The notes under the pieces were generated by a model that was not told the DNA's origin, did no database searches, and was given only the letters and a program-made list of their open reading frames with translations. A stretch of DNA of 64,000 nt, from the NCBI RefSeq assembly GCF_015694465.1, contig NZ_JADQDO010000001.1, forward strand, positions 434,001 through 498,000, written 5' to 3'. Position numbers and translations under genes: made by a program. Shown here one piece after another: positions 5,529-37,777 of the stretch (position 1 is the stretch's first letter; each line of letters starts with the position of its first letter). The DNA is from Microvirga alba. Its GTDB lineage: Bacteria; Pseudomonadota; Alphaproteobacteria; Rhizobiales; Beijerinckiaceae.

Positions 5529-5549
5529 GGGCGTTTTATCGAGCTTGAT

Positions 5550-7729: not shown

Positions 7730-7837
7730 GCTGTCGGGTTGAAGGCGGATTGTCTGCTCCATCGCCCCTTGCGGCGCTGAAGCCCTTGCCATGGGCCGCT
7801 TGGGCGGGTAGGCAGCCTGTGATACGGCACCATTGTT

Positions 7838-8629: not shown

Positions 8630-8651
8630 AGCGATCCCTGTCACGGGCTTG
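8617..8651. terminator. Inverted repeat at convergent gene ends
   Basis: CAAGCCCG / CGGGCTTG with a 19-nt loop spans the stop codon of the glycosyltransferase and faces the end of the small membrane-protein gene. It lacks a T-run and may act weakly in both directions. Confidence 0.4.
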
Positions 8652-8674
8652 AAGGTCGCTCGCTCGCCTCGCTC

Positions 8675-8854
8675 CTAACGCTGTCCGACCATCGTCGCGA
8701 TAATCGTTCCCGTGATCATAACCAGGGCGGCAGCCGGGGCGGCCCAATTCAAAACGCGCGCCAGGCGGTCATTCGCAGGGTTGTTCTGGGGCACTTCGAG
8801 GCGAATGACGTGCTCATCGACAGGCTGTTCGACGAGGCGTGTTTCAAGGCGCAT
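8675..8854 (-). CDS. Small single-helix membrane protein (59 aa)
   Basis: Fifty-nine residues starting MRLETRLVEQ, with an acidic/polar N-terminal part and one hydrophobic helix near the C-terminus (about 36-57). The stretch ANDRLARVLNW immediately before the helix matches ADDTIARVLDW of the 40-residue protein at 5728-5850 in both position and pattern. The start at 8854 is supported by AGGAGA about 7 nt upstream; a longer frame to 8923 lacks such a site. It lies just beyond the end of dosC on the same strand. Function unknown. Confidence 0.65.
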   Translation of the reverse strand: MRLETRLVEQPVDEHVIRLEVPQNNPANDRLARVLNWAAPAAALVMITGTIIATMVGQR

Positions 8855-8943
8855 GACGCTCTCCTGTTGCGGGTGTCCGGACCCATGCCAGAGCTCCGCT
8901 GCAGGGTCATTGATCCGGATCAAGAGCGCTTGAGGGCGGCGTC

Positions 8944-10341
8944 TCAGCCGACACGATCCATCCGCGCCGATTCAGAAATCATGCAGCGGTTTCGGCCCAT
9001 CTGCTTTGCTCGATAAAGCGCATGATCCGCAGCTTTTATCAGGTACGAAAAGTCCGGATGGCCGTCGAAGGTCGCGATGCCGACCGAAACGGTGACGGGC
9101 AGGCGCGTATTGTCCGGCGAGATGAAATCCCGGGCCTCGATAGCCCCCCGGATTCGTTCCGCAATCTGAAACGCGGCATCGCTGTCCATTTCAACGAGGG
9201 CGACGAGAAACTCCTCTCCGCCATAGCGAAAGACGAAGTCGCTCAGCCGACAGGTTTCGAGAACCACATCCGCGATTTGACGCAACACCGCGTCCCCGGC
9301 TGGGTGCCCCCACTGATCGTTGATCTGTTTGAAGTGATCCACGTCGATCATGAGAACAGAGAATTGCGTGTCGTTCTTCGTCGCGATGGCGATTTCACGG
9401 CTGAGGATCGAAGGCAGGAAACGGCGGTTGAGCGTTTGCGTCAGCGGATCCCTGCCATTCTCGATGGCGGCCACGGATTGAAACATGTCCGCGAGCAGGA
9501 ATTTCATTTCAGCGATCGCTGCCTGTAGCTTTTCGAGAAGTCCGGGAAGCTCCGACCGGCTTCCGCTGCGCGCCGCGGCGATCTGCGGCAACAAATCGGA
9601 ATCGATGCTGCGCATGGACCGCTCAATATGTTCGAGGGTGGCGGAGCCTTGGAACATCACACCGGCACGATGGTGAAGCCAGAGGCCGAATTCGGACGCT
9701 GAAATCGAGGCAAGTTTGGCCTCCTGCTCTGTCCCGTAGAGGCTGAACAGAACGCTTTGGCTCCACTCCATCAAGGCGGCCCGTTGGCTCTCCCGCTCGA
9801 GGGTAATATCCTGGCCGAGCGAGAACAGGCGATAGGCTTCATCGGTCTGAACACGGCTCGCCGTGCTGCGCACGAACGCCTGACTCATGATCTCGATTGC
9901 GAGATCGATCAGACCGCCCGCATAGACGAGCGCGGCCCACAAATCGTCGCGCTGGAGCGGGGTTGTCTCCAGGCGCTGGAAGAGAGCGACCTTGAGAAGG
10001 TTGGCACCCTGCATGACGAGGTGGATCGGAATTCGGATGCGCGCATGGACGTCGCCGATGGTCTTCTGCCGATCGCTGAAAAGCGTCACATCATCCGCGA
10101 TCTGCGCGACGAACAGATCCGTCAGCCAGCGCCGCAGCGAATGATGAAGCCGTTCATTGACGATCGAATGCGACAAGAAGCGCGCAGCCTCCTCGTCTTG
10201 CAGCAACGTCGAATAGAAAATTGCGACCAGCTCGTCCGCCGCGTCCTCAACGACGAGCGCCACGGTGCGGCGGGTCCCAAGGCTGGCGGAGCCGAGAATG
10301 TCGTCGACCCTCGTTGCAATTGGCGGATGCGTCTTTTCCAA
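8944..10341 (-). CDS. dosC: Globin-coupled oxygen-sensing diguanylate cyclase
   Basis: A 465-residue cytosolic enzyme that makes cyclic di-GMP under control of a heme. The N-terminal globin sensor has Tyr43 (distal) in IFYSTL and the proximal heme ligand His99 in TIGDVHARIRIP, aligned with Tyr43/His98 of E. coli DosC. A linker domain follows, then a GGDEF domain from about residue 290 with GRDPLTQTLNRRFL, DVDHFKQIND and the active-site loop RYGGEEF. Overall similarity to DosC extends along the whole length. It is 15 bp behind a RidA-family gene and so probably in one operon. No c-di-GMP phosphodiesterase partner (DosP) is adjacent. Confidence 0.93.
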   Translation of the reverse strand: MEKTHPPIATRVDDILGSASLGTRRTVALVVEDAADELVAIFYSTLLQDEEAARFLSHSIVNERLHHSLRRWLTDLFVAQIADDVTLFSDRQKTIGDVHARIRIPIHLVMQGANLLKVALFQRLETTPLQRDDLWAALVYAGGLIDLAIEIMSQAFVRSTASRVQTDEAYRLFSLGQDITLERESQRAALMEWSQSVLFSLYGTEQEAKLASISASEFGLWLHHRAGVMFQGSATLEHIERSMRSIDSDLLPQIAAARSGSRSELPGLLEKLQAAIAEMKFLLADMFQSVAAIENGRDPLTQTLNRRFLPSILSREIAIATKNDTQFSVLMIDVDHFKQINDQWGHPAGDAVLRQIADVVLETCRLSDFVFRYGGEEFLVALVEMDSDAAFQIAERIRGAIEARDFISPDNTRLPVTVSVGIATFDGHPDFSYLIKAADHALYRAKQMGRNRCMISESARMDRVG

Positions 10342-10356
10342 CGGGGATGTCTTTCG

Positions 10357-10710
10357 TCACAAGGCCGCGATGACCTGAATTTCAAGTGCGTATTGAGGGT
10401 CGGCAAGCCTGGATTGCACGCAGACCCGCGCCGGCGAATGCCCGGGCATGACCCAGGCATCCCAAACGGCGTTCATCTCTTCGTAGGAGTCGATATCCGC
10501 CAGCCAAATCGTCGCGTGCAGGAGCCTGGACTTGTCGCTACCGATCTCCGCCAGGGATTGCTCGATCTGCGCGAGGATGTCCTTCGTCTGATCCGAAATC
10601 GAATGCCCGAGCGTCGTTTCCGGGACGTAACCAGAAAAATAGGCCGTATCGCCCAGGATCACGAGGTCACTGTAGCGGGCGGCAACGCCGATCCGATTGA
10701 TTTCTGTCAC
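10357..10710 (-). CDS. RidA/YjgF/UK114 family protein
   Basis: A 117-residue member of the Rid family, which typically forms trimers that hydrolyse reactive enamine/imine intermediates. The typical core is present: DTAYFSGYVPE, then ATIWLADI, and a C-terminal SPARVCVQSRLADP holding the carboxylate-binding Arg. It lies 15 bp upstream of dosC on the same strand, a pairing of unclear meaning. It belongs to one of the RidA paralogous groups rather than obviously to RidA itself, so no symbol is given. Confidence 0.88.
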   Translation of the reverse strand: MTEINRIGVAARYSDLVILGDTAYFSGYVPETTLGHSISDQTKDILAQIEQSLAEIGSDKSRLLHATIWLADIDSYEEMNAVWDAWVMPGHSPARVCVQSRLADPQYALEIQVIAAL

Positions 10711-10797
10711 GCTGCTGACTCCGTTCGACGGTCTCGGGGTGGCCTCCGTATCACAGGTTCCGTCGTGCCGTAACGGTAGGCGCGCTCCCGGGTCGTC

Positions 10798-11214
10798 CTA
10801 CTGAGCGTCTTCCACCGATACGACCAGAAGCCGATGTATTTCGCCCGATCTCGTCGGCCAGGTAATCGATTGCCCTTCGGAGAGGCCGATGAGCGCGGCT
10901 CCGATCGGCGTCATGACGGAAATCCGCTTTTCGGCGATGTTTGCCTCTTCCGGGAAAACGAGCGTGACGCGCTCGGTTCGGCCGGTCTGCTCATCGCGAA
11001 AGGTGAGGGTGGTGCCCATGGTCACGAGCTTGGCCGGAATTCGCGCCGAAGGGACGATTTTCGCGCGGTCGAGTTCAGCCGCCAGATAATCGGCGACCTC
11101 CGGCATCCGGTCCGCGGCGGCGTCGGCCAGCCGTGAGAGACGAGCATAATCGGCTTCGGTCAGGACGATCTTCGGCTTCCGGGCGGTAGCAGATTTCGAA
11201 ATGGATTCGGTCAT
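10798..11214 (-). CDS. rnk: Rnk, nucleoside diphosphate kinase regulator
   Basis: A 138-residue protein with a short N-terminal coiled coil (about 15-50) and a GreA/GreB-like C-terminal domain (VTLVFPEEANIAEKRISVMTPIGAALIGL). Rnk binds RNA polymerase near the secondary channel and affects nucleotide metabolism. The ATG at 11214 (MTESISKSATARKP) fits the family. An in-frame ATG at 11235 would add seven residues, and a still longer version has no homology. A hairpin is present in its upstream leader. Confidence 0.88.
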   Translation of the reverse strand: MTESISKSATARKPKIVLTEADYARLSRLADAAADRMPEVADYLAAELDRAKIVPSARIPAKLVTMGTTLTFRDEQTGRTERVTLVFPEEANIAEKRISVMTPIGAALIGLSEGQSITWPTRSGEIHRLLVVSVEDAQ

Positions 11215-11299
11215 AGGGTGCTCAAGGAAAAACATGCGCCCGCCCGCGAGCGTCGAGGGCAGGGACAATGGATATGGGAATGTTTGTGAAGCATGACCC

Positions 11300-11328
11300 G
11301 AGCAGGGGTGCGCAAAACCGCACCGCTC
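11300..11328 (-). repeat. Stem-loop in the rnk upstream leader
   Basis: Two stacked stems, GAGC/GCTC and GGTGCG/CGCACC, separated by a 3-nt bulge and closed by a 6-nt loop. It lies about 85 bp upstream of the rnk start on the transcribed side, so it could be an attenuator or the end of an upstream transcript. Confidence 0.4.
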
Positions 11329-11708
11329 ACCCGGGCTAGGAATGTGCGATGAGTTGTCCTGCGGAGCGCAGGCCTCGGCTATAGGGCGCGAAATGACTCA
11401 TGCCGCCATGCTAGCTCCGGTCTCCATATTGTCAATTCCGTAGAGCGGACCCGCGTCTCTTGTGCGCTCCTCGGGCCAGACGGGACTGGCGCTCCAACGC
11501 GTATCCGTCTCTTGCGATGGAATCGGTCCCAGGCCCATCCGGCGTGGCGTAAGGATCGGGCGTCCTGCACTTCCAATGCCCGGGATTCGTTCCCACCACC
11601 CGGTCTCGTCTGACACTTGGTGACCAATATGAGCGGGGCAATTGCATTACGCCTTCGCGATTTGCGCCCGCGCAGCAGGCTTTGTTCACGCCATCGGCGG
11701 AAACGGGA

Positions 11709-24872: not shown

Positions 24873-25577
24873 CTAGGTGTGTGCCTGCGGGGCATGAGGG
24901 CCCCCTTGTTTGGTCGCAATCCAAATCGTGTGTCTTGCGCCACCACGTCGTCCGTTGGCGCGCGCACCTACCTCATCCACGCGAAATCCTGCCTTGCGAA
25001 GTCGGTGGGTGAAGTTTCGATTCGGTGCCGAGGACCACACAGCTAAGACGCCACCAGGCGACAGCGCCGTCCGGGCGGCGCTTAGCCCTGCCAAGTCGTA
25101 GAGGCTATCATTAGCCTCGCGGGTCAGTCCCTCGGGGCCATTGTCGACGTCTAGCAGGATCGCATCGTAGGCTGACCGGCCGCACCTTATCAGACGGCCG
25201 ACATCGTCTTCGCAGATGCTGACGCGCGGATCCGCAAGGCTATCGCCAAATACTTCGGCCATCGGACCTCGTGCCCATGCCACGACAGCGGGTACCAGTT
25301 CAGCCACGGTGACCTGAGCATCAGAGCCGAGTTCAGCAAGCGCAGCGCGGAGCGTAAAGCCCATGCCCAACCCACCAATAAGAATCTTCGCCCGCTGGCG
25401 GCCCCGTATTCTCAGGCAGGACAGTCTGGCGAGCGCCTCCTCGGAACCACTGAGACGGCTATTCATCAGTTCGTTGTTACCCAACATGATTGAGAACTCG
25501 GCCCCGCGCTTCTTAAGGCGCAGCTCGCCGCCTTCACCAGGAATCGCTGCTGTATCGAGTAAGGCCCAGGGGATCAT
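24873..25577 (-). CDS. Spermidine-synthase-like methyltransferase-fold protein
   Basis: A 234-residue protein with the SAM/decarboxylated-SAM-binding Rossmann fold. Glycine motif GGLGMGFTLRAAL is near residue 68, the acidic strand end is TVAELVPAVVAWA, and LLDVDNGPEGLTREANDSLYD is near 138. It is shorter than true spermidine synthases (about 290 residues) and lacks most of their N-terminal beta domain. Aminopropyl transfer is therefore unproven; a small methyltransferase is equally possible. No polyamine genes adjoin it directly, although an Orn/Lys/Arg decarboxylase lies 8 kb away. Confidence 0.7.
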   Translation of the reverse strand: MIPWALLDTAAIPGEGGELRLKKRGAEFSIMLGNNELMNSRLSGSEEALARLSCLRIRGRQRAKILIGGLGMGFTLRAALAELGSDAQVTVAELVPAVVAWARGPMAEVFGDSLADPRVSICEDDVGRLIRCGRSAYDAILLDVDNGPEGLTREANDSLYDLAGLSAARTALSPGGVLAVWSSAPNRNFTHRLRKAGFRVDEVGARANGRRGGARHTIWIATKQGGPHAPQAHT

Positions 25578-26520: not shown

Positions 26521-27633
26521 ATGGATACAGACCTTTCCGCTGCAGATTGGCCGATGAAGGATTCAGCGGTTCTGCACCCGAAGGCCAACGAACATCTCGC
26601 AGTCGACCATCCTCGCCGAATCCCAGTCAAAGCCGGCTTCATTCATCTGGGCGTGATCAAGGAGTTGATCCCCGTTTTGCAGGATTTCGGGACCGATCCC
26701 GAAAGCGTCATCCGGGAGGCTGGTCTCGATCCTCGCCTGTTTGAGGAGGCAAGTAATGTGATTGCCTTCTCAAGCCTCAACAAGCTGCTGACTCTAGCCG
26801 CCACGCGCACCCGATGCCCCCATCTCGGTTTGCTGGTCGGCCGGAAAGCGACGATCTCTTCCATGGGGATCGTCGGCTGCCTTATGCAACACTCCAAGAC
26901 CGTTGGGGGCGCCCTGGAGAGTCTCGTCAGGCACCTCCATCTCCAAAACCGTGTCGCTGTTCCCAAGCTCGTCGTGAGCGGCGGCGAGGCAATGCTGAGC
27001 CTGCGTGTCTATGCGCCTGTCGGCGAGAGTGCGGATCAAATAGCCGATGCATCGCTTGCCACGGCTTTCCAGTCGCTGGCGGCGATATGCGGCCCACGAT
27101 GGGTCGCGGCGGAGGTTCTTCTGCCGAGGAAGCAGCCCGCGGATCCGCAGCCCTATCGTGATTTTTTCCGGGCGCCTCTGCGGTTTAACGAAGAGGCGGC
27201 CACTCTTGTCTTCTCGGCAAGCTGGCTCGCCTCTCCCATCGCTGGAGCGGATGCGGTTTTTCGCCAGATTTTCGAGGAACGGATTGCCGAGCTGGAAGCC
27301 GTTCCCAACAGGGACTTTCGGGATGAGGTGCGTCGTGCGCTGCGGTCGCGGCTTCTGAAGAATAAATGCTCTGCCGGCGAGGTTGCGAGCTACTTCGCAA
27401 TACACCGCCGTACCCTGCACCGACGCCTGGTTGCCGAGGGGACCGACTTCAGCGCGATTGTCGATGAAATGCGGTTCGAGATTGCACGCCAATTGCTCGC
27501 CGCCACCAACATAACCCTTGGCCAGGTCGCGGCCGCGCTCAGTTATTCGGAGGCCGGCGCCTTCACAAGGGCCTTCCGGCGCTGGTCGGGCCAGACCCCG
27601 AAATCGTGGCGCGCCGAGCATCGCCGACGATAA
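26521..27633 (+). CDS. AraC-family transcriptional regulator (arabinose-binding-type N-domain)
   Basis: A 370-residue regulator. The N-terminal domain (about 30-225) is of the OruR/ArgR-like AraC_binding type, beginning VIKELIPVLQDFGTDPESVIREAGLD. The C-terminal double helix-turn-helix includes SAGEVASYFAIHRRTLHRRL and LGQVAAALSYSEAGAFTRAFRRWSGQTPKSWR. The ATG at 26521 is preceded by GGGAG 9 nt away; a TTG seven codons earlier is less likely. It converges with the AspT/AspD cluster. Since relatives such as OruR and ArgR govern amino-acid use, control of that cluster is a reasonable guess. Confidence 0.88.
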   Translation: MDTDLSAADWPMKDSAVLHPKANEHLAVDHPRRIPVKAGFIHLGVIKELIPVLQDFGTDPESVIREAGLDPRLFEEASNVIAFSSLNKLLTLAATRTRCPHLGLLVGRKATISSMGIVGCLMQHSKTVGGALESLVRHLHLQNRVAVPKLVVSGGEAMLSLRVYAPVGESADQIADASLATAFQSLAAICGPRWVAAEVLLPRKQPADPQPYRDFFRAPLRFNEEAATLVFSASWLASPIAGADAVFRQIFEERIAELEAVPNRDFRDEVRRALRSRLLKNKCSAGEVASYFAIHRRTLHRRLVAEGTDFSAIVDEMRFEIARQLLAATNITLGQVAAALSYSEAGAFTRAFRRWSGQTPKSWRAEHRRR

Positions 27634-27963
27634 GCCTACCGATCTGGATGGTTTCATCCCAAATTCCGACGGCGAAATCGAGGAGGCCAGAGCGGCTTGT
27701 AAACGCCTATGCGGCGAGCCCCTCGGATTGCTCAGCGAGTGACGGTTGGGAATTGCAGGCGCATTTCACCTGTCCTGTCCCGCTCAAGATCACTCGTGCA
27801 CTGTCAACGGGTCGGAACCCGCGTGTCGGACGATCACAGGTTTGAGCGGACGGCTGCGGACACATGACATGGTCGGCCAGTCCTGCGCTTGCGGCCCAGC
27901 GCCCATCGGTGACACCGCGACCCGCATGCCGAGCCCGGTCCGGGCTCATTGCGGTTCCTCTTT
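27634..27963. other. Convergent intergenic region
   Basis: 330 bp between the ends of the AraC gene and the aspT-like gene. No gene seen; it contains the terminator hairpin at 27931-27947. Confidence 0.55.
27931..27947 (-). terminator. Hairpin downstream of aspT-like gene
   Basis: Perfect GAGCCCG / CGGGCTC with a 3-nt loop, 16 bp past the stop codon of the antiporter gene. It is very stable but has no T-run. Confidence 0.55.
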
Positions 27964-29649
27964 TCAGATAGTCATCATCGCAACGAGAACCGGCCCCCAG
28001 GCTGTTAGAAGAATATTTCCGATGGCATAGGGAACCGTATAACCTAGGGCCGGAATGCTGCTTTGCGCCTCGTCCTGTAACGCACGAAGGGCAGCGGTAA
28101 TCGTGCCGGCCCCAGCACAGGCACCCAGGACAATAAGGGGATTCATCTTCAGGACGTAGCGGCCGAAGAGGATCCCCAGCGTATGAGGAAGCAGGGCTGA
28201 CACCAAGCCGACGACGACCAGGCTCAGGCCGGCTGTCTGCAAACCCGAGATAAAACTCGGCCCGGCGCTCAGGCCGACAATACCGATGAATATACAAAGC
28301 CCAACGGTATCGAATATCCAAATCGCTGGTTCCGGAATGCGGCCGAAAAAAGGATAGACTGACCTGAGCCATCCAAAGACCAAACCCATGACCAGCGCGC
28401 CGCCGCTCGCGGTAAGGGTAAGCGGCACGCTCCAGACCACTACGGAAAGGAGGCCGACCAAGCCGCCGAGAAAGATACCGATCCCGACGAAAACCATGTC
28501 TGTCGCCGCTGTGTGTCGATCGGGATAGCCCAGCTCCTGAACCGCGCGCTCGACTTCGGGTAAGGTTCCAATAACGCGCATCACGTCCCCCCGATCGACG
28601 CGGGTTTCCGGCGAGATTGGCATTTCAAGCCCAGCTCGCGTGAGCTTGGACAGAAACACGCCCCGGGCAAAATGAAGACGCGCTAAGTCCGCCAGCGACT
28701 TGCCTTGTATGGATCGGTTCGTGATTACGACATCCAAGGCCTCCAGTGGAATGTCGAGGAGGACGGGGTCGCTGACTTCGGGACCGATTGTGCTCCCGCG
28801 CGTTGCATGGATTCCCTGTCGCGCGATCACCGCAATGACGTCGCCCTCCCGGATGACCAGATCTGGTGCTGACTCCATGACCTGGTCTCCGCTACGAACA
28901 CGCACAATAAACACGCGGGTGGGCTGAGGGAGGCTCTCAAGCTCGGCTATCGTCTTATTGATCAGCGTCGGACAGGTGACACGATAAGCTCGCACGTCGA
29001 ATGAACGAGCGGCAGACATGACGCCTTCCGCAGTTTCATCAGACTTCATAGTATCCGCATGGAATCGAATAGCCTCTTCCCGAAGATTGATTCCCATGAG
29101 TTTGGGACCGATCGTGGGCAGAAACCAAACCAGCGTGGCCGTTCCGACGAGGTAGGTTACTGCATAGGCAACGGGGATATTGTTGACCAGCGTGGTCCTC
29201 TCCGTCTCGGGAATGGCCAAACGTTGGATTGCCTCCCCAGCAGTGCCAATCACAGTCGACTCCGAGAAAGCACCTGCAAGAAGGCCGGCCGCCGTTCCGA
29301 CGTCATATCCCAACAGCTTTGAAAAGCCGAACGCCGTGAGCAGGCAAACGACGCACACAAGAACGGTTAGAGCCATTTGAGGGATTGCGTCGCTTTTCAG
29401 CCCGCGGAAGAATTGCGGCCCAACCTTATATCCCGTGGTGAAGAGAAAGAGGTCGAAGAAGACCGTTTTGACCAAAGGCGAAATCTTGATGTCGAGTTGG
29501 CCGATCAGCACCCCGGCCAAAAGGCAGCCAACGACAATCCCGAGGCTGAAGCTTCGAAACCTGATGCGGCCGATGAGGAAGCCGATCGCTATCGTCAGGA
29601 AGATAGCAAGCTCCGGATTGTGCCGCATGGCCGATACGAAGAAATCCAT
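27964..29649 (-). CDS. aspT: Aspartate:alanine antiporter family protein (AspT-like, first)
   Basis: A 561-residue inner-membrane exchanger of the AAE family. Five or so N-terminal helices begin MDFFVSAMRHNPELAIFLTIAIGFLIGR. A large cytoplasmic loop (about 190-360) holds two TrkA_C/RCK_C-like segments (VMESAPDLVIREGDVIAVIA; RVDRGDVMRVIG), and a second membrane half carries the conserved GYTVPYAIGNILLT at the end. In Tetragenococcus, AspT swaps Asp(2-) for Ala(1-), and together with AspD builds proton-motive force. The ATG at 29649 follows GGAGGG. It is the last gene of the decarboxylation cluster, 129 bp behind aspD. Confidence 0.88.
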   Translation of the reverse strand: MDFFVSAMRHNPELAIFLTIAIGFLIGRIRFRSFSLGIVVGCLLAGVLIGQLDIKISPLVKTVFFDLFLFTTGYKVGPQFFRGLKSDAIPQMALTVLVCVVCLLTAFGFSKLLGYDVGTAAGLLAGAFSESTVIGTAGEAIQRLAIPETERTTLVNNIPVAYAVTYLVGTATLVWFLPTIGPKLMGINLREEAIRFHADTMKSDETAEGVMSAARSFDVRAYRVTCPTLINKTIAELESLPQPTRVFIVRVRSGDQVMESAPDLVIREGDVIAVIARQGIHATRGSTIGPEVSDPVLLDIPLEALDVVITNRSIQGKSLADLARLHFARGVFLSKLTRAGLEMPISPETRVDRGDVMRVIGTLPEVERAVQELGYPDRHTAATDMVFVGIGIFLGGLVGLLSVVVWSVPLTLTASGGALVMGLVFGWLRSVYPFFGRIPEPAIWIFDTVGLCIFIGIVGLSAGPSFISGLQTAGLSLVVVGLVSALLPHTLGILFGRYVLKMNPLIVLGACAGAGTITAALRALQDEAQSSIPALGYTVPYAIGNILLTAWGPVLVAMMTI

Positions 29650-29778
29650 GTTGCACCCTCCGCACGCCTGTCTAGTCAAGCTGACGCGCACGCAACCTGC
29701 CGCTCACGGTCAGAAACCAGAATCCCAGTGCCGTCGCGGCACTCCTGACTCCAAGTGTTCGAGCACCCCTTTTCACGC

Positions 29779-31404
29779 CTAGGCGATCCGCGCCTTCTTG
29801 GATGCCATGGTGTAAGCCTCGAAGGCTTGGCGATAACCGCGGGCCACCGCCCGGGTGGCGCGGCCGATCTGGCTGTAGACTTCATCGTCAAGGTTGGCGA
29901 ATGAGACGCGTACGGACCAGTCCGGCGCGGAAAAACCGCCTCCGTTCAGCAGCACAATTCCGTAATCTTCAGCCAAGCGGAACACGATATCCAGCGGGTG
30001 GATATGCTCCTTCATGTACGCTACGACCTCCGGGCCGACATATTTGTTCGCCCAGAACTCGAAATCGACCAGCCCATAGTATCTGTCATGGAGAGGGTTG
30101 TCGGGCACTTCGATGCCAAGCCCTTCAACCATCCGGTCCAAGCGGGCCTGCACGATCTCCATGCAGGCCCTCTGATAGGTCTTGGCCTCGTCCATCATCT
30201 CGGCGAGTGAGAACAGGCTCATCATCACCTGCTGCGGCAAGGAGAGCCCGGCCGTATGATTGAGCGCAACGTCGCGGCTGTCTGCGACGATGCGGTCGAT
30301 CAACTTGATCTCCCGTGGCTTCAGGGTCAATGCGCCGTAGCGTGCGTCCAATGCGGCCTGAACACTTTCAGGGTGTTCGGCGATGGCTTTGTCGAAGACG
30401 TTGTCTTGATGGATCGCGATGACGCCCAGCCGCCAGCCTGTACAGCCAAAATACTTGGAATAGGAATAAACCCCGATTGTGTTGCGAGGAAGGGCGCCCA
30501 GCAATCCGCGGAACCCCTTAACAAATGTTCCGTAGACATCGTCGGTCAGCAACATCAGATCTGGCCGCTTCGTCTCCACCAAGGTCACGATCTTGTCGAT
30601 GGTCTCCTTGCTCATGGCGACCGCATAGGGATTGCCTGGGTTCACCACGAAGAACGCCTTGACCTTCGGATCCTCGAGCTTTTTGAGCTCGGCGTCGGTG
30701 AACTGGAACCGGTTCTCTTGGTGCGCCGCGACATGGATTACGTTCAGGCCATAATCCTCGAGATGAGGCATTTCGAGGTACGGCGTAAAAATCGGCGTGC
30801 CAAGCGCTATCGTATCGCCAGGATTGAGCAGCCGGTTCGCTTTTAGCGACTTGAAGATATAGCACATGGCGGCCGTGCCGCCCTCAACTGCGTAAAGGTC
30901 ATACTGGCCAGCCGGGCGGGGTTGGCCGCACATCGCCCACATGAGGTATTCATGCACGATCCTCTCGTTGTGGACGAGCATCCGGTCTGGGACCGGGTAG
31001 TTGTCGCCAATGATCGAGTCGACGAGTTCGTGGACGAAGGCATCCGGCTTGAAGTTGAACTTCTCGACGGCGAACGCAACCATCGCGGTCAGAAAGGCGG
31101 CGCCGGGCGATGACTTGCGCTCCGCAAGCCAGACGTCAAGACGATGAGCGATACCGTCGGCTTTAGGCATTCCGCCAATTCCCGCAGCCTTGCTCATCAC
31201 CCGCCGGCTTTCGGTGATGGCGAACTGACCAAGCAGGAAGAAGCCCTCGCGCGGTGTGGTGGCGACCCAGTTCGGGTTCCCGCGACCGGCATTCAGAAAC
31301 GCCAGTGCCGAGGTCTGCGCCGTCTGTTTTGCTATCTCGATAAGTTCATCCTTGATCTCGAACGGGCTCAACTTCTCGAAGCTGCGCAATCTCACGAGGT
31401 CCAT
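29779..31404 (-). CDS. aspD: Aspartate 4-decarboxylase
   Basis: A 541-residue PLP enzyme of fold type I that converts L-aspartate to L-alanine plus CO2, consuming a cytoplasmic proton. The PLP lysine is Lys317 in YSYSKYFGCTGWRLG. Other signatures are NPGNPYAVAMSKE near 257 and LLTDDVYGTF near 288. Length (about 530-540) is right for AspD and longer than ordinary aspartate aminotransferases. It sits between two AspT-like antiporter genes with a gap of only 25 bp to the upstream one. The set Asp uptake, decarboxylation, Ala export is the textbook electrogenic decarboxylation cycle. Confidence 0.92.
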   Translation of the reverse strand: MDLVRLRSFEKLSPFEIKDELIEIAKQTAQTSALAFLNAGRGNPNWVATTPREGFFLLGQFAITESRRVMSKAAGIGGMPKADGIAHRLDVWLAERKSSPGAAFLTAMVAFAVEKFNFKPDAFVHELVDSIIGDNYPVPDRMLVHNERIVHEYLMWAMCGQPRPAGQYDLYAVEGGTAAMCYIFKSLKANRLLNPGDTIALGTPIFTPYLEMPHLEDYGLNVIHVAAHQENRFQFTDAELKKLEDPKVKAFFVVNPGNPYAVAMSKETIDKIVTLVETKRPDLMLLTDDVYGTFVKGFRGLLGALPRNTIGVYSYSKYFGCTGWRLGVIAIHQDNVFDKAIAEHPESVQAALDARYGALTLKPREIKLIDRIVADSRDVALNHTAGLSLPQQVMMSLFSLAEMMDEAKTYQRACMEIVQARLDRMVEGLGIEVPDNPLHDRYYGLVDFEFWANKYVGPEVVAYMKEHIHPLDIVFRLAEDYGIVLLNGGGFSAPDWSVRVSFANLDDEVYSQIGRATRAVARGYRQAFEAYTMASKKARIA

Positions 31405-31429
31405 GGTTCTCTCTCCAAATTCGCGAATG

Positions 31430-33121
31430 CTAGGTCATCAACATGACGATGATCATCCCCCAGATGGTGAGTAGCGTGTTGCCGACGGCATAGGTGACGG
31501 TATAGCCGAGCGCCGGTACTTGGCTCTTGGCGGTTTCACAGATCATGCCGAGCGCGGCCGTCGTCGTGCGCGCCCCAGCGCAGCATCCAAGCAAAATCGC
31601 AGGATCGAAGCGGAAGACGTATTTGCCCACAAACATCGCGAGAATCAGCGGCACCGATGTCGCGCAGATGCCCCAGATGAAGAGACCGATGCCTTGGGTT
31701 TGAAGCCCTTTGACGAAACCGGGACCTGCCGATATGCCGACCACGGCGATGAACATGGAGAGGCCGACTGAGTTCATGAACCAGACGGTTGACGACGGAA
31801 TCCGGCCGAACATGGGTCTCACTGCTCGCAGCCAGCCGAAAACAAGTCCTGCGATCAAAGCGCCCCCAGCCGTCGACAGCGTGAGTGGCAATCCGCCTAC
31901 CTTGAAGACAAGGGCGCCGATGAGGGCGCCGAGCGTGATGGCTCCCCCGATGAACGCGACATCTGCGACATCGCTCGGCCGGTCGGGATAGCCGAGAAGT
32001 TTGGCGAGCGCCGCCGTATCCTGTGAGCGACCCACGATCGTCAGAATATCACCGCGATTGATCACTGTGTTCGGAAGAATGGGAATGCGTGTGGCGAGTG
32101 CACCGCGTAAGATGCGACGAAGAAAAACCCCGCGAGCCTGCGGGAGTTGGGCAAGTTCAGAAAGCGTCTTTCCATCCACATCCTTGTTGGTGACATAGAC
32201 GTCGAAGCCCTCTGCCTTAACGTCGAGGAGTTCTGGGTCCTCGACCTCGTCGGCTGCTCGCCCGATGAGGTTCACCAGCGTTTCGCGGGGACCGGCCACC
32301 GCTACGATATCGCCTTCCTGCAGCACGGTATCAGCCGTCGCATCCTCGATTTTTCCGTTGCGGCGAATGCGCTCGATGAAGACGCGGGCGTCGGGTACGA
32401 GCTCCTCCGCCTCAACCGCCTTCATTCCGGCGGCGCGAGCACCCGACCGCAGGCGAAAAGCGCGCAGCTCCCAGCGGTGCCAAACGGAGCCTTCTCCCCC
32501 AAGTTCTTTCCCGCCTCCCAGACGGGCTTCGTAATCCTTGCAAGCTTGGACGAGATCGACGCCGAGCAGCTTCGGGCCGAGCAGAGCGAGAATGACGGCT
32601 GAGCCCACTGTTCCGAATATGTACGTGACGGCATAAGCAACCGGCATGGCATCGAGAAGGGCCTTGGTCTGATCCGATGGAAGGCCTAAGCGATTGATGG
32701 CATCCGTAGCGAGCCCCATCGACGCCGAGATGGTCTGCGAGCCGGCATACAAACCCGCAGTGTATCCGATGTCGTACCCAGCGACGCGCGCAGCCACAAT
32801 GGAAGCGGCAAGACAAAGCACGGCAACGACGACTGCAAACAACGCCTGTGGAGTTCCGTCTTTGGCAATGCCGCGGACGAATTGCGGACCAACGCCGTAA
32901 CCTACGGCGAATAAGAACATCAGGAAGAAGGTCGCTTTGACGTTCGGGGAAATCGTGATCCCGATTTGTCCGATAATGACGGCCGCGATGAGGGTCGAGG
33001 TGACCGCGCCGAGGCTGAAACCGCGGTAGGAAAAACTCCCCACGTAGTACCCGATGCCCAGAGAGAGAAAAAGAGCGATTTCAGGATAGGTACGAAGCGT
33101 ATTGGCGAACCATGCAAACAT
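31430..33121 (-). CDS. AspT-like amino-acid antiporter, second copy
   Basis: A 563-residue AAE-family exchanger with the same layout as the one at 27964-29649: an N-terminal membrane half ([28 protein letters not shown]), a long cytoplasmic loop with two RCK_C-like segments, and a C-terminal half ending [14 protein letters not shown]. Shared motifs include FGWLR...FGRIP and LSAGP/ISAGP, but the two differ in much of the loop. It directly precedes aspD and follows the large decarboxylase. It may exchange a different amino acid/product pair than its partner; substrate unproven, so no symbol is given. Confidence 0.85.
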
Positions 33122-33173
33122 GTCCCTTCCCTTTCATTCGAGTGCAAACCCCGCGCGAGACTTAGTGCATCCT

Positions 33174-35942
33174 TTATGCTGCCTGTGACCGTCTGCGGGC
33201 GCTCGAGGTTGCGCGAGCATCGTTCTTGCTCATGATCGCGTCTGGCCTGAGCAGCTTGAGCCCTTTCGCTTTCTCGTAGCCGTGGATCTCTTTCACATCG
33301 AGTTGACGCATGAAATTGATGGCGGCCTGGGTGATTACCTGACCCGGCACCATGATCGGAAACCCTGGCGGGTAGGGAATCACGAAGTTGGCCGAAACCA
33401 TCTCCGGTCCTTCGCGGAGACGTTTGTCGCACTCTGGGCTGTCCAGTCGAACGTATTCGCAATCCTCCGGCGCATAGGCGGCGAAGAATGCACCGCGAAT
33501 ATCACCTTCAGGCGTTGTTGCCCCGGCGTCATAGCGGAACGCTTCATGAAATCGGCTGAAGTCCGGCAGATCAGGTACGTCTTTCATCAGGCTGTGCACC
33601 CGGGCCGCGAACGCCTGTCGCTCGCCTTCACCGCCCTGCATGAGGCGGGTCTCGATGCTGTTGCAGATCCTCAGGAGGATGCTGATCAGCTGAGCCACGT
33701 CGCTGCGCGTGTTATTGATGTTCGATTGCAGCAAGACGGAGTTTCGGGACGTTTTGTTGACCTGGATATTGTACTCGGATGCAAGCAATCCCTTAAAGGA
33801 TGTCCCGTCGAAGCCCGCAGTACCGCAGACCAATGTCATACGCGTCGGGTCGAGGCAGAACTCGTCCTCCCGCATACTGCGTAACTGATCGTCCCATCGA
33901 GTACCGGGAGCCAGAAAATCGATGAAGCCGCTGGTGCGGTATTCTTCAGGAATCATTCCATCCGCTCCGACGATGCGGAAGTATTTCGCTATCAGCGGAT
34001 GAGCGTTGACCTCGCGACGGATATCCAGCGCAACCTCCATCGCATTCATCACGAGGCCGTAACCTTCGAGTTCCATCTGCCGCCGCGCGACATCAAGGCT
34101 CGCGATGATTTGCTGATTGGGGCTGGTCGAGGCATGCGTAAAGATGGCCTCGTGAAACTGCGCTTCTACTGTGGGGAAGTCGACATCTTTGACCAGAACC
34201 ATCGACCCCTGGCGGATGGCTGACATCGACTTGTGGGTCGAATTTGTCTGGTAAACCCGCAACCGAATGGCGCGGGGATCTGGCACTAAATGGGTGTCCA
34301 GCAGGGTCTCCCGCGATGGGCTTTCGCCGATTTCGGCGCGGTGACGTTCATACTTGGCGAGAGCGTCAGCGCTTCTCATCCAGGCTTCAATGTCGGCTGC
34401 GGCCCCCATGGCGGTTCGCGGCCGGAGGAACGGCGACCACCGCGCAAAACCAAACCACGCCTCGTCCCAGAGGAAGATGAGGTCCGGCTTGATCGCGAGA
34501 CATTCTTCCATCACGCGACGGACATTGTAGATATGGCCGTCGAAGGTACAGTTGGTCAGGTCGACCATTTTGACGCGGTCGAGCCGATCCTCCGCCTTCA
34601 GATCCAGCAGTGCCTTCTTGATCGTGCGCAGTGGCACCGCTCCGTACATCGAGAATTCCGGCATCGGAAATGCCTCGACGTAGAGAGGCTGGGCGCCGCA
34701 CAGCACTAGCCCATAGTGGTGCGACTTGTGGCAATTGCGGTCAAGGATAACGATGTCGCCCGGGGCCACGAGCGCCTGAAGCACCATCTTGTTGGACGTG
34801 CTGGTTCCATTGGTTACAAAGAATACACGGTCGGCGCCGAACGCGCGCGCAGCCATTTCCTGCGCTCGTTTGATGTTGCCGGTCGGCTCAAGCAGACTAT
34901 CAAGGCCGCCCGTGGTCGCACTGCTTTCCGCCAGGAATAGGTTGATCCCGTAGAACTGGCCCATGTCGCGGATCCACGGTGATCGGAAGACAGACTTGCC
35001 CCTAGCAATCGGGAGGGCGTGAAACGTGCTGATCGGACGTTGAGCGTAGTGCTTGAGATTATCGAAGAACGGTGTCTCGTATCGCGCCTCGATGCCCTCT
35101 AGAATGGACAGGTGAAGTTCCAACGGTTCTTCGATCTGATACATGACGCGGCGAAAGATCGTGGCGCGCGGATCGCCGGCAAGCCTTTCCACCCGCCTGT
35201 CGGACAACAAGTAGATATCGAGCTCCGGCCGGATTGCCTTTAGTCTGTCCGCAAGAAGAAGCGCCAGATCGGCTTCACCGGCCTTCTCCAATGCTGCTTT
35301 TTGAGCTGCAATGACCCGGCGGAGAACCGGGGCATCGTAGCGCGACTTCAAGGCGAAGCCTTCATAGAGGGCCACCGCCGCTATGTCAGGATTAAGCACG
35401 ATGGCACAGATCGCATCTTCGAGGCTGGCCACGGGAACGACCTCGTAGACGAATGCGTCTTCCGGCCGACGCAATCGGCGAAACTCAGCGATGATGTGCG
35501 GCCATCGCGGAGCGGGGGCGGGCGTTACGAGCAAGAGCTCGAAGTAGGGGCGGGTCTGCGGCTGTGCCCCGATCGCGGGTGGGAGAAGATCGGCAGGTTT
35601 CGCGAAGATGTCGTCCGCCGTTTCCCATTCTTTGGGATCGTGCTTGTAGTTCCCAGTGATAATGGCAAGCGATATCCGTTTGGAAAGTGATAAGAAGCCG
35701 GTTGGGTCTTCGTCTTGAAGCTGCTCACGCAGCGCCGCCATCAGCTCCGGGCCAGGGAATGCGTAATACTCCTCGATGACCCCAACCTCGTCGAGCGCTG
35801 CCTCGACGGCATGCCGCTCAACCTCGCGATTGACCCAAGCTCTGGCAGCCGCATGAACATCGCGCCAGCGATCAAGTCGGGCAGACGGCGCGGAGAAAAA
35901 GTGGTCGACTGAGTATGCGTCCGGGCTCGAATCCGCTGTCAT
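33174..35942 (-). CDS. Orn/Lys/Arg-type PLP decarboxylase
   Basis: A 922-residue fold-type I decarboxylase, longer than the inducible acid-stress enzymes LdcI, SpeF or AdiA (about 710-755). The PLP lysine is Lys571 in TNSTHKSMSAIRQGSM; upstream are FFVTNGTSTSNKM (PLP phosphate site) and FLWDEAWFGFA (Asp contacting PLP). About 300 residues precede the PLP domain, including a wing/REC-like domain. The C-terminal domain ends in PYPPGFPIMVPGQVI. Substrate among arginine, lysine and ornithine cannot be told. GGAGGAGT gives a strong ribosome-binding site. It heads a four-gene operon with two antiporters and aspD, pointing to acid resistance or energy from amino-acid decarboxylation. Confidence 0.9.
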   Translation of the reverse strand: MTADSSPDAYSVDHFFSAPSARLDRWRDVHAAARAWVNREVERHAVEAALDEVGVIEEYYAFPGPELMAALREQLQDEDPTGFLSLSKRISLAIITGNYKHDPKEWETADDIFAKPADLLPPAIGAQPQTRPYFELLLVTPAPAPRWPHIIAEFRRLRRPEDAFVYEVVPVASLEDAICAIVLNPDIAAVALYEGFALKSRYDAPVLRRVIAAQKAALEKAGEADLALLLADRLKAIRPELDIYLLSDRRVERLAGDPRATIFRRVMYQIEEPLELHLSILEGIEARYETPFFDNLKHYAQRPISTFHALPIARGKSVFRSPWIRDMGQFYGINLFLAESSATTGGLDSLLEPTGNIKRAQEMAARAFGADRVFFVTNGTSTSNKMVLQALVAPGDIVILDRNCHKSHHYGLVLCGAQPLYVEAFPMPEFSMYGAVPLRTIKKALLDLKAEDRLDRVKMVDLTNCTFDGHIYNVRRVMEECLAIKPDLIFLWDEAWFGFARWSPFLRPRTAMGAAADIEAWMRSADALAKYERHRAEIGESPSRETLLDTHLVPDPRAIRLRVYQTNSTHKSMSAIRQGSMVLVKDVDFPTVEAQFHEAIFTHASTSPNQQIIASLDVARRQMELEGYGLVMNAMEVALDIRREVNAHPLIAKYFRIVGADGMIPEEYRTSGFIDFLAPGTRWDDQLRSMREDEFCLDPTRMTLVCGTAGFDGTSFKGLLASEYNIQVNKTSRNSVLLQSNINNTRSDVAQLISILLRICNSIETRLMQGGEGERQAFAARVHSLMKDVPDLPDFSRFHEAFRYDAGATTPEGDIRGAFFAAYAPEDCEYVRLDSPECDKRLREGPEMVSANFVIPYPPGFPIMVPGQVITQAAINFMRQLDVKEIHGYEKAKGLKLLRPDAIMSKNDARATSSARRRSQAA

Positions 35943-36354
35943 GGACTCCTCCTTCGAGAACGACCGCTGTCAGGCCTGAAGCCTACACCTCTGCACACAA
36001 GCCAACCGAGCGCCCGCAACCTGATCAGGGCTCAGAGAATATACGCATAGGTGCCTCCATGGTTCAGTTTACACGAGGAGGGGTTTCCCAGCTTGACACA
36101 TGGGGACAGGTTCTTGGCATTTAGTGACATAGCTCAAATTCAAACGAGTTCAGGCGGAGACCCAGTCCTATCCGCACCATAGTCTGAAATGCCGGACTCC
36201 CGCGCAGAGGGGCCTCATTCAACGTCCGGACATGGCACGAAGCCGAAGCAAGGCTTTGGTTCGTCGGCCTAACCAGATCTTCGTGAAGGGCAGGGGGAGT
36301 CGAAGTGTCTGCCTCAAAAACAGTCCTTCACATGGTCCCAAGGAGAAGCGGCGC
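35943..36354. other. Intergenic region upstream of decarboxylase operon
   Basis: 412 bp without a gene. The part next to the decarboxylase should hold the operon promoter. Further out lies the degenerate element B (36232-36315) and a stretch near 36080-36130 that resembles decayed mobile-element DNA but cannot be assigned. Confidence 0.45.
36232..36315. repeat. Degenerate intergenic element B
   Basis: Counterpart of element A at 24702-24790, in the same orientation; see that entry for the shared blocks. Here it ends about 40 bp from the 3' end of pepT. Confidence 0.4.
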
Positions 36355-37590
36355 TTACGCGCGCTCCTCCCAGAGTTTGGCGAGCTCGACAATAGTCTTC
36401 GCTGCTTTTTCCATGTCCTGGCTGCTGACGAATTCCAGTGGGGAATGGAAGGCATGGCCGCCAGCGAAGATATTGGCGCAAGGAAGCCCCATGAACGAGA
36501 GGCGCGAACCGTCCGTGCCGCCGCGAATAGAACCGCGCACCGGCGTCATTCCAGCGCGGCGGATCGCTTCAACCGCGTAGTCGACGATCTCCGGATGCCG
36601 GTCGAGCACGACCTTCATGTTGCGGTACTGTTCCTTGACGGTGAAGGTGTAGCTGGAACCCGGATAACCCTCCATCACCTCCTTGGTGATCTTTTCCAGC
36701 AGGGCCTCCTTGCTCTTGAGGCCATCCTCCGTGAAGTCGCGGATGATGAAGCTGAGTGTCGCCTTTTCCATCACTCCGGAAACGCCGGTCGGATGGATGA
36801 AACCATCACGGCCCTTCGTCGTCTCGGGCGCCATGTCCTTCGGCAGACGCGCGATGACGGCCCCGGCTATCCTGATGGCGTTTTCCATCTTGCCGTAGGC
36901 GAACCCCGGATGGATCGCCACGCCCTTGATGGTAATCTCCACCGCATCGGCGGAGAAGGTCTCGTCCTCAATGGTGCCAGCCGTCTCGCCGTCCATCGTG
37001 TAGCCGAAGTCGGCACCGAGCTTTTTGAGGTCGACCTTGTTAACCCCGCGGCCGATCTCCTCGTCGGTGGTGAAGAGGATGCGGATCGTGCCGTGCTTGA
37101 TGTCCGGGTTGTTGATCAGGAATTCGGTCGCCGCCACGATTTCGGCAATCCCGGCCTTGTCGTCGGCGCCCAAGAGCGTCGTGCCGTCCGACGTGATGAT
37201 GTCGTTGCCGATCAGGTCCTTCAACACTTGATTTTCAACGACCCGGATGATTTGGCTCGGATCGCCCGGTAGGGGGATGTCAGCGCCCTGGTAGTTCCTG
37301 ACGACCTGCGGCTTGACGTTGGTGCCACTGAAGTCAGGAGCCGTGTCCATGTGGGCGCAGAAGCAGATGACAGGAACGTTGTTTTTGGCCGTATTCGACG
37401 GAATGGTCGCATAGACATACCCGTGCTCGTCGAGATGAGCGTCGGAGATACCGATCTCGAGGAGCTCCTCGACCACCAGACGGCCAAGGTTCTTCTGCTT
37501 CTCGGTCGATGGCTGTGTCGAGGACTTGGCGTCGGATTGAGTGTCGATGACGACGTAACGGAGAAAACGATCTGTAACGCTGGTGGCCAT
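36355..37590 (-). CDS. pepT: Peptidase T (tripeptide aminopeptidase)
   Basis: A 411-residue cytosolic zinc aminopeptidase of family M20 that removes the N-terminal residue of tripeptides. Metal and catalytic residues are visible in FCAHMDTAPD (His, catalytic Asp), GADDKAGIAEI (bridging Asp), TTDEEIGRG (catalytic Glu pair), MDGETAG and HSPLEFVS (final His). A dimerisation domain occupies about 210-320. The ATG at 37590 matches the usual PepT start; the frame continues upstream without homology. It is divergent from yigZ, with 187 bp between them. Confidence 0.95.
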   Translation of the reverse strand: MATSVTDRFLRYVVIDTQSDAKSSTQPSTEKQKNLGRLVVEELLEIGISDAHLDEHGYVYATIPSNTAKNNVPVICFCAHMDTAPDFSGTNVKPQVVRNYQGADIPLPGDPSQIIRVVENQVLKDLIGNDIITSDGTTLLGADDKAGIAEIVAATEFLINNPDIKHGTIRILFTTDEEIGRGVNKVDLKKLGADFGYTMDGETAGTIEDETFSADAVEITIKGVAIHPGFAYGKMENAIRIAGAVIARLPKDMAPETTKGRDGFIHPTGVSGVMEKATLSFIIRDFTEDGLKSKEALLEKITKEVMEGYPGSSYTFTVKEQYRNMKVVLDRHPEIVDYAVEAIRRAGMTPVRGSIRGGTDGSRLSFMGLPCANIFAGGHAFHSPLEFVSSQDMEKAAKTIVELAKLWEERA

Positions 37591-37777
37591 GGGGACGATC
37601 CGAATGGGTAAGGATGACAACCGATTTGTAGCGGGGCGAAGCTGTCTCGTGAATGGGTTGTCGGAAAATCCTTGTTTTGGAGCGCCCTTATCGGTCGCCC
37701 CGGCCACTGATGCCAGGGATCAGTCATCCGGGGGACCTCCAGTTGCCCGGACCGCAACTTCGGCGCTATGTGGGCAT

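What the first reader, a model, noticed from the sequence alone, without database searches (positions are those of the whole stretch)
27964..35942. Decarboxylation cluster with two AspT-like antiporters, AspD and a large Orn/Lys/Arg-type decarboxylase
AspT plus AspD is a known proton-motive cycle, but here a second antiporter and a 922-residue basic amino-acid decarboxylase are in the same operon. Two decarboxylases and two exchangers could run parallel acid-consuming cycles; whether an AAE-family protein can exchange a basic amino acid for its polyamine is unknown to me.
Basis: partly seen in the sequence, partly recalled or inferred. Interest (0 to 1): 0.62.

Follow-up and report, generated by a model that had tools for sequence, protein, structure and literature searches.

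The report
Likely glutamate/aspartate decarboxylation operon
A bacterial operon pairs two exchangers with two amino-acid decarboxylases; the large enzyme, named for basic amino acids, is more likely an unrecognised glutamate decarboxylase, which can be tested directly at the bench.

Summary
The four genes are real: one strand, gaps 52, 25 and 129 nt: 922-aa PLP decarboxylase (ADC), AspT1, AspD, AspT2. AspT1, AspD and AspT2 pass curated cut-offs. ADC passes no curated Orn/Lys/Arg decarboxylase cut-off; its nearest solved relative is M. tuberculosis Rv2531c, activity unknown. I think 'basic amino acid' is wrong. In 102 of 102 ADC-family sequences CadA's Glu526 is Asn, and the PGHxGG motif of the E. 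coli enzymes is replaced, gaining Arg and Lys. In a 297-genome order sample all 11 close ADCs have an AspT-family gene directly beside them; 9 of these 11 genomes have no AspD. In two genomes of one genus a canonical glutamate decarboxylase (gadB) sits where ADC sits, before relatives of the same two antiporters. A sister antiporter clade lies directly behind gadB in 5 of 5 cases; gltS or gabT flank a few ADCs. Best reading: two acid-consuming, possibly electrogenic cycles, Asp/Ala (AspD) and Glu/GABA (ADC). Shown: anatomy, linkage, replacement, residues. Inferred: ADC's substrate, which antiporter serves it, co-transcription. Alternatives: Asp to beta-alanine, other acidic substrates, basic substrate.

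The parts
33174..35942 (-). ADC: 922-aa fold-type-I PLP decarboxylase of the Rv2531c family; proposed acidic (glutamate) alpha-decarboxylase
   Evidence: OKR_DC_1 240 bits; Rv2531c 764 bits, top fold match 9n0o; below the Orn/Lys/Arg model cut-offs
34230..34232 (-). codon of Lys571, PLP lysine (CadA Lys367)
   Evidence: aligned and kept in 102 of 102 family members
34995..35003 (-). codons of Arg314-Gly315-Lys316, aligned with Gly154-Gly155-Thr156 at the end of CadA's PGHxGG motif
   Evidence: Arg 102 of 102, Lys 102 of 102; Rv2531c, not among the 102, has Arg but Ala for Lys
33744..33758 (-). codons of Asn729 (CadA Glu526) to Arg733 (CadA Pro530, AdiA Asp)
   Evidence: Asn 102 of 102, Arg 101 of 102; Rv2531c has Asn but Ile for Arg733
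31430..33121 (-). AspT1: AAE-family antiporter, clade A (motif GSQTxSA / GARTTT)
   Evidence: TIGR03802 670.8 bits; clade A in trees
29779..31404 (-). AspD: aspartate 4-decarboxylase
   Evidence: TIGR03801 764.9 bits, cut-off 435; solved relatives 2zy2, 2zy3, 3fdd
27964..29649 (-). AspT2: AAE-family antiporter, clade B (motif AFSES / GAGTIT)
   Evidence: TIGR03802 642.3 bits; clade B in trees with ADC-linked genes of L012 and L073
26500..27633 (+). AraC-type regulator gene, convergent with the operon; link to the operon not shown
   Evidence: Arabinose_bd and HTH_18; QhpR model 206.9 bits, below its cut-off 250; start codon uncertain

Best explanation
The operon encodes two decarboxylation cycles for acidic amino acids. 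AspD removes the beta-carboxyl of aspartate (Asp to Ala + CO2) and an AspT-type antiporter swaps Asp outside for Ala inside, as known. ADC, although built on the Orn/Lys/Arg decarboxylase scaffold, most likely removes the alpha-carboxyl of glutamate (Glu to GABA + CO2), and the other AAE-family antiporter swaps Glu for GABA. Each turn would use one cytoplasmic proton and, if the exchange is Glu(1-)/GABA(0) as for Asp/Ala, move one negative charge inward: acid resistance and proton-motive force. Shown by sequence: the four genes and their families, the linkage of close ADCs to AAE genes independent of AspD, the replacement by gadB in one genus, the changed residues. Inferred: glutamate as substrate, the exchange, the pairing of ADC with AspT2 and AspD with AspT1 (about 60:40 against the reverse), co-transcription and physiological role.
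For: (1) Order sample of 297 genomes: 11 of 11 close ADCs (at least 66% identical) have an AAE gene on the same strand 20-205 nt away; AAE (TIGR03802, E up to 1e-60) occurs in 22 of the other 286 genomes (Fisher p = 6e-12; 10 of 10 without the window's own genome); 9 of the 11 have no AspD, and among AspD-less genomes it is 9 of 9 against 7 of 277. The 11 fall in 7 genera. (2) In 41 ADC genomes that I chose from the 80 loci, 12 have no AspD over the cut-off, and 24 of 24 AAE genes over 350 bits in these 12 lie within 10 kb of ADC. (3) In G417 and G468 (one genus; no ADC at E 1e-100, no AspD) a canonical gadB (TIGR01788 519 and 522 bits, cut-off 380) directly precedes the same two AAE types that accompany ADC elsewhere. 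(4) The E-type AAE (ADC- or gadB-linked) and an H-type AAE form one clade (support 100/98); 5 of 5 H genes (4 genomes) have gadB directly upstream. (5) gltS directly behind the ADC-linked AAE in L121 (307 bits, cut-off 311) and L122 (387), and behind AspD in L021 (320): 3 of 88 close-ADC loci; gabT in 3 of 13 distant-ADC loci. (6) Glu526 to Asn 102/102, Gly154 to Arg 102/102, Thr156 to Lys 102/102, Pro530 to Arg 101/102, while Lys367, His245, Asp330 and Trp333 are kept 102/102. (7) The AAE family is said to include a glutamate exporter (PMC9527358, abstract passage).
Against: I found no enzyme of this family with a shown activity. The gadB replacement is one genus, so possibly one event; the other 5 of the 7 AAE genomes (370 bits or more) with neither close ADC nor AspD show no ADC, AspD or gadB in the fetched stretch, so AAE genes also occur without a decarboxylase. 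ADC and gadB do not exclude each other significantly (1 of 20 against 27 of 277 genomes, p = 0.7). The window itself has no gltS, gabT or gadB match, and its two AAEs are of clades A and B, not the gadB-linked clade E; A and E swap on the ADC tree, but A often comes with AspD. E. coli AdiA also lacks Glu526 (Thr), so that position alone does not exclude a basic substrate. Rv2531c lacks two of the three new basic residues. Residues 302-352, which hold the Arg/Lys motif, are below pLDDT 50 in the model, so its geometry is untested. 13 of 80 loci, 12 of them Bradyrhizobium, have no full-length AAE in the fetched stretch, although the four of these 12 whose genomes were searched have AAE genes elsewhere. 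None of the 9 distant ADC genomes has an AAE at E 1e-60.
Confidence: 0.55

Rival explanations
1. ADC is an aspartate 1-decarboxylase (Asp to beta-alanine + CO2); both cycles start from aspartate and the antiporters swap Asp for beta-Ala and Asp for Ala.
For: AAE prototypes carry aspartate; AspD is in the same gene order in the window and in 11 of 80 loci; the basic residues fit either dicarboxylic amino acid.
Against: The enzyme that stands in for ADC before the same antiporter types is a glutamate decarboxylase; gltS and gabT are among the neighbours, though neighbours were not searched for beta-alanine genes; AspD is absent from 9 of 11 close-ADC genomes.
Confidence: 0.13
2. One reading: ADC is a basic amino-acid decarboxylase and one AAE antiporter swaps Arg/agmatine, Orn/putrescine or Lys/cadaverine.
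For: Fold and Pfam family are those of Orn/Lys/Arg decarboxylases; E. coli AdiA also has no Glu at position 526; Roseateles L091 has a LysE/ArgP pair about 3.5 kb from its distant ADC.
Against: Far below the Orn/Lys/Arg model cut-offs; new basic residues in the PGHxGG motif; no polyamine or basic-amino-acid transporter among the representatives of 19 recurrent neighbour clusters that I scanned (several gave no match); a mutant of the Rv2531c gene was reported not crucial for growth on arginine (PMC4569260, passage); L-Lys is called a non-substrate of AspT (PMC9508256, passage).
Confidence: 0.1
3. ADC acts on another acidic amino acid (for example cysteate, cysteine sulfinate, phosphoserine or aminoadipate) and the antiporter swaps that for its amine.
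For: Nothing in the sequence fixes chain length; several distant ADCs sit in a different cassette (CN hydrolase, ATP-grasp, C45 acyltransferase), so the family may have more than one substrate.
Against: The gadB replacement and the gltS/gabT neighbours point to glutamate.
Confidence: 0.12
4. The genes are neighbours in a general acid or envelope-stress island and ADC needs no antiporter of its own.
For: PPK2, SulP, DUF2950, DUF3300 and HlyD-like genes recur around ADC in 32-50 of 88 loci; five AAE genomes have no decarboxylase beside the AAE.
Against: An AAE is in direct contact with ADC in 11 of 11 close-ADC genomes, and no match to the island genes was found in this window.
Confidence: 0.1

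Closest known systems
AspD/AspT aspartate-alanine cycle (Tetragenococcus halophilus)
   Same: AspD and two AspT-family antiporters pass the curated models; proton use by decarboxylation and electrogenic exchange would be the same
   Different: A second decarboxylase of another family and a second AAE clade are in the same cluster; close ADCs keep AAE genes without AspD
GadB/GadC glutamate-dependent acid resistance
   Same: Proposed reaction (Glu to GABA) and logic of decarboxylase plus exchanger; gadB stands in ADC's place in G417 and G468
   Different: ADC is of the OKR branch, not a PF00282 decarboxylase; the exchanger is of the AAE family, not APC-type GadC (APC is recalled). A gadB, GadC-like, aspD, AAE cluster exists in G400 (L151)
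AdiA/AdiC, CadA/CadB, SpeF/PotE systems
   Same: Enzyme scaffold and cofactor residues
   Different: PGHxGG lost and, against CadA and SpeF, Glu526 lost; Arg/Lys gained; longer N-terminal part; no such antiporter seen beside it
Rv2531c of M. tuberculosis ('adi')
   Same: Nearest solved structure: 764 bits over residues 46-909, target TM-score 0.92 to 9n0o; same Asn and first Arg
   Different: 37% identical over the structural alignment; Lys316 is Ala and Arg733 is Ile; activity unknown (PMC12910592, passages)

Membership tests
AAE (AspT) antiporters, TIGR03802 | score over the curated cut-off 546.95 | tested here: met
   670.8 and 642.3 bits
AAE (AspT) antiporters, TIGR03802 | Asp/Ala exchange | not testable with these tools
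   needs reconstitution; the E-type relatives in other genomes score about 365-394 bits, below the cut-off
Aspartate 4-decarboxylase, TIGR03801 | score over cut-off 435.1 | tested here: met
   764.9 bits
OKR decarboxylase superfamily (Pfam OKR_DC_1) | score over cut-off and PLP residues kept | tested here: met
   240 bits, cut-off 27; Lys, His, Asp, Trp kept 102/102
Ornithine, lysine or arginine decarboxylases (NCBIfam models) | score over curated cut-off (794-1310) | tested here: not met
   92.8-175.3 bits for the six models matched
Ornithine, lysine or arginine decarboxylases (NCBIfam models) | PGHxGG motif, and Glu at CadA 526 (as seen in E. coli CadA and SpeF) | tested here: not met
   LPxxRG and Asn; AdiA keeps PGHxGG but has Thr at 526; only three E. 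coli enzymes were the yardstick
Glutamate decarboxylase GadB, TIGR01788 / PF00282 | match to the family | tested here: not met
   ADC has no such match; no PF00282 or TIGR01788 match in the own genome. ADC could work like GadB but is not a member
Rv2531c-like decarboxylases | full-length homology incl. the N-terminal region | tested here: met
   residues 46-909 aligned, 764 bits; target TM-score 0.92
Glutamate/GABA exchange system | Glu decarboxylation and Glu/GABA exchange | not testable with these tools
   inferred from replacement by gadB and residues

The most novel reading that the evidence does not exclude
The Rv2531c-type enzymes are an independent invention of glutamate decarboxylase on the Orn/Lys/Arg decarboxylase scaffold, filed under the wrong substrate in rhizobia and mycobacteria, and a branch of the AspT family is their Glu/GABA exchanger, so that this operon runs two acidic amino-acid cycles side by side with no part of GadB/GadC.
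Probability: 0.45. Interest if true: 0.75.

Novelty: new variant of a known kind. Interest (0 to 1): 0.62.

Why it matters
If right, a large decarboxylase family that is annotated for basic amino acids makes GABA instead. That would correct annotation across rhizobia and relatives, give the unknown Rv2531c branch a testable substrate class, extend the AAE family from Asp/Ala to Glu/GABA exchange, and offer a candidate enzyme type for bacteria that make GABA at low pH without GadA/GadB, such as Castellaniella MT123 (PMC12915299, passages incl. part of the abstract), whose 'arginine/lysine/ornithine decarboxylase' I could not compare with this family.

Tried and rejected
Rejected: ADC as partner of AspD only (close ADCs keep their AAE in genomes without AspD). 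Rejected as an argument: mutual exclusion of ADC and gadB (p = 0.7). Rejected as a specificity key on its own: the class I / class II motif of the AAEs, because clade A occurs beside AspD as well as beside ADC. Led nowhere: Rfam (no hit in 27000-37000), promoter and terminator scan (chance level), H-type AAE on plasmids (best match 32% identical), structure geometry (motif region under pLDDT 50; no coordinates are given out). A 900-aa frame beside the AAE of L116 was checked in case it hid a decarboxylase: it matches none. Alignment A3 held one row, L020, at 26% identity, most likely in a wrong frame, and was not used. Trees: the E+H join is flagged by the program as a meeting of long branches; the trees are quick ones. 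In one search I left out 5 of 13 loci without AAE and 7 Bradyrhizobium E loci before building; L004 was labelled II although an AspT1 is there, a fault of my gene calling. In one search the second and later tests leave out six weak AAE genomes (213-233 bits).

Papers: PMC12910592, PMC4569260, PMC9508256 (also its outline and introduction), PMC5607190, PMC8503589, PMC2912261, PMC4960864, PMC9527358, PMC10971958, PMC12915299 and PMC10385936 were seen as passages found by term, not whole. PMC12329521 (the Rv2531c structure paper) is not held. That S. meliloti SMa0680/SMa0682 belong to this family is recalled, not tested. Searches for AAE proteins as partners of a basic or glutamate decarboxylase: searches returned 0 papers; the listings showed none by title and abstract start. 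That covers this library only.

Full report
What is there. The window comes from an assembly of 4.42 Mb in 25 contigs, Bosea-like by its nearest loci. Four minus-strand genes lie at 35942-27964: ADC (922 aa), AspT1 (563 aa), AspD (541 aa), AspT2 (561 aa from the ATG at 29649). Gaps are 52, 25 and 129 nt. AspT1, AspT2 and AspD pass their curated NCBIfam models; ADC passes Pfam OKR_DC_1 but stays at 92.8-175.3 bits against ornithine, lysine and arginine decarboxylase models with cut-offs of 794-1310. Its closest solved relative is M. tuberculosis Rv2531c (764 bits); the AlphaFold model (mean pLDDT 76.8, pTM 0.80) matches 9n0o with target TM-score 0.92 (37% identity), and AdiA (2vyc), LdcI (3n75) and OrnDC (1ord) at 0.54-0.57 with rmsd near 11. 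Rv2531c has no known activity: PMC12910592 says the structural study did not clarify it (passages), and its gene was reported not crucial for growth on arginine (PMC4569260, passage).

ADC goes with AAE antiporters, not only with AspD. A scan of GTDB genomes gave 353 encoding stretches, of which the best 80 were kept. In 67 of these 80 loci a full-length AAE gene lies in the fetched stretch (68 counting shorter pieces), often two; AspD is variable in place and often missing from the stretch. To reduce the bias of that choice I drew 297 genomes of the order, at least 90% complete. ADC (E up to 1e-100) occurs in 20: 11 close (66-100% identity) and 9 distant (47-50%). AAE (TIGR03802, E up to 1e-60) occurs in 33 and AspD in 11. 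All 11 close ADCs have an AAE on the same strand with 20-205 nt between the matches, in 10 of 11 on the 3' side; only 2 of the 11 genomes (the window's own and G520) have AspD. Fisher: 11/11 against 22/286, p = 6e-12; without the own genome and without six weak AAE genomes (213-233 bits) 10/10 against 16/286, p = 4e-12; AspD-less genomes 9/9 against 7/277, p = 4e-13. The 11 close genomes belong to 7 genera, so the number of independent cases is smaller than 11. None of the 9 distant ADC genomes has an AAE. A class sample of 192 genomes held 7 with ADC, the own genome included. AspD, as expected, has an AAE within 150 nt in all 11 of its genomes (11 of its 12 genes; the twelfth, in G520, is 2.0 kb from one).

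In 41 ADC genomes that I picked from the 80 loci for variety, 12 have no AspD over the cut-off, and each of those has two AAE genes over 350 bits; all 24 lie within 10 kb of ADC. Against this, 13 of the 80 loci have no full-length AAE in the stretch; four of these (L047, L050, L058, L063) were among the 41 and have AAE genes beside AspD elsewhere in the genome, in L047 about 10 kb away.

Which AAE. Trees of 127 (quick) and 74 (careful) AAE proteins give clades A (window AspT1), B (window AspT2), C, D and E. E genes follow ADC directly: -28 to +26 nt in 20 of 22 rows, the other two overlapping more because of long ORF calls; none of the 22 stretches holds AspD, though one of these genomes (L020's, G011) has AspD elsewhere. 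A genes are found beside AspD on other contigs than ADC (L102, L103), beside AspD in a genome without ADC (G517, L167), beside AspD in L160 (its genome was not searched for ADC), and also beside ADC. B genes outside Bosea are ADC-linked without AspD in the stretch (L012, L073; in L073's genome a clade A gene and AspD sit on another contig). Hence my preferred pairing in the window is ADC with AspT2 and AspD with AspT1, at about 60:40; AspT1 being the gene next to ADC speaks for the reverse. On an ADC tree of 79 rows the labels A and E need at least 10 and 8 changes by starred branches: the slot beside ADC is swapped between E and A, A often with AspD.

The replacement. Seven AAE genomes of the order sample (370 bits or more) have neither close ADC nor AspD. 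Two of them (G417, G468; one genus) carry an E-type and a D-type AAE in tandem, and the directly upstream gene on the same strand is a glutamate decarboxylase: TIGR01788 519 and 522 bits, cut-off 380; gaps are 84 and 57 nt. The other five (G320, G348, G416, G433, G450) have A-like AAE genes with no ADC, AspD or gadB match in 15-16 kb. E of the ADC loci and E of the gadB loci are 66-70% identical in these comparisons, and the D genes of both contexts form one clade (100/98). The next relatives of E, an H-type clade, sit directly behind gadB in 5 of 5 cases in four genomes (L106, whose gadB is cut by the end of the stretch, L153, L154, L155, L156). E plus H is a clade with support 100/98, with the program's warning about long branches. 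In the phylum sample of 397 genomes six had E-type genes at 62% identity or more: five of one genus, all with ADC beside the E gene, and G550 of another class, with ADC directly before E as well. One further E-type gene, in G525 (L116), has no ADC, gadB or AspD match nearby.

Neighbours that name a substrate. gltS follows the ADC-linked AAE directly in L121 (307 bits, just under its cut-off 311) and L122 (387), and follows AspD in L021 (320): 3 of 88 close-ADC loci. The genomes of L121 and L122 have one AAE each at E 1e-60. gabT lies near distant ADCs in L089, L125 and L126, 3 of 13. No background rate was measured for these two counts. No gadB match was found in the 88 close-ADC loci.

Residues. 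In an alignment with E. coli CadA, AdiA and SpeF the cofactor residues Lys367, His245, Asp330 and Trp333 of CadA are kept in 102 of 102 ADC-family sequences (89 close, 13 distant; Rv2531c not among them). Glu526, for which a substrate-binding role has been proposed (PMC5607190, passages), is Asn in 102; AdiA has Thr there. In PGHxGG, shared by the three E. coli enzymes, Gly154 is Arg in 102, and Thr156, just after the motif, is Lys in 102; Pro530 (Asp in AdiA) is Arg in 101. Rv2531c keeps Asn and the first Arg but has Ala and Ile at the other two. A loss of an acid and a gain of bases fits a substrate with a distal carboxylate. That these residues touch the substrate is inference from the scaffold: residues 302-352 of the model have pLDDT below 50.

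Mechanism. Glu enters as an anion, is decarboxylated with one proton taken from the cytoplasm, and GABA leaves; together with the Asp/Ala cycle this would consume acid and could build proton-motive force, as described for AspT in T. halophilus (PMC9508256, introduction read). The AAE family is stated to include a glutamate exporter (PMC9527358, abstract passage). None of the transport steps is shown for these proteins.

Limits. One genus carries the gadB replacement. ADC and gadB do not avoid each other significantly. The window has no match to gltS, gabT, gadB, PPK2 or SulP and no E-type AAE. Whether Asp rather than Glu is ADC's substrate cannot be told from residues. The finding is therefore a directly testable prediction, not a demonstration.

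Noticed in passing
L151 (G400), 3421-11146: gadB, a GadC-like permease (490 bits, below the model's cut-off 650), a 359-aa gene, aspD and an AAE gene in a row on one strand: the same two cycles, mostly from classic parts.
   Followed up: partly
L125-L129, L089, L094, L096: Distant ADCs sit in a cassette with an ATP-grasp protein (named biotin carboxylase) and a C45 acyltransferase or peptidase, in several loci with a CN hydrolase; no AAE match there. Function unknown.
   Followed up: partly
88 close-ADC loci (L002-L081 and eight more): PPK2, SulP, DUF2950, DUF3300, HlyD-like and Cax genes recur near ADC (12-50 of 88 loci), as in an acid or envelope stress island; no match in this window.
   Followed up: partly
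L114 6360-7964; cluster 14 in 25 of 88 close-ADC loci: A regulator with a Trans_reg_C domain and a TPR repeat, CadC-like in outline, in L114; weakly similar proteins recur near ADC.
   Followed up: no
L116 (G525) 7784-11481: Divergent E-type and other AAE genes with no ADC, AspD or gadB match in 18 kb.
   Followed up: partly
window 24873-25577: ORF with a weak match (37 bits, cut-off 472) to polyamine aminopropyltransferase, about 2.4 kb from the operon's end; no sign of a link.
   Followed up: no
window 36355-37707: pepT (peptidase T, 446 bits, cut-off 286) lies upstream of ADC on the same strand with a gap of about 410 nt.
   Followed up: no
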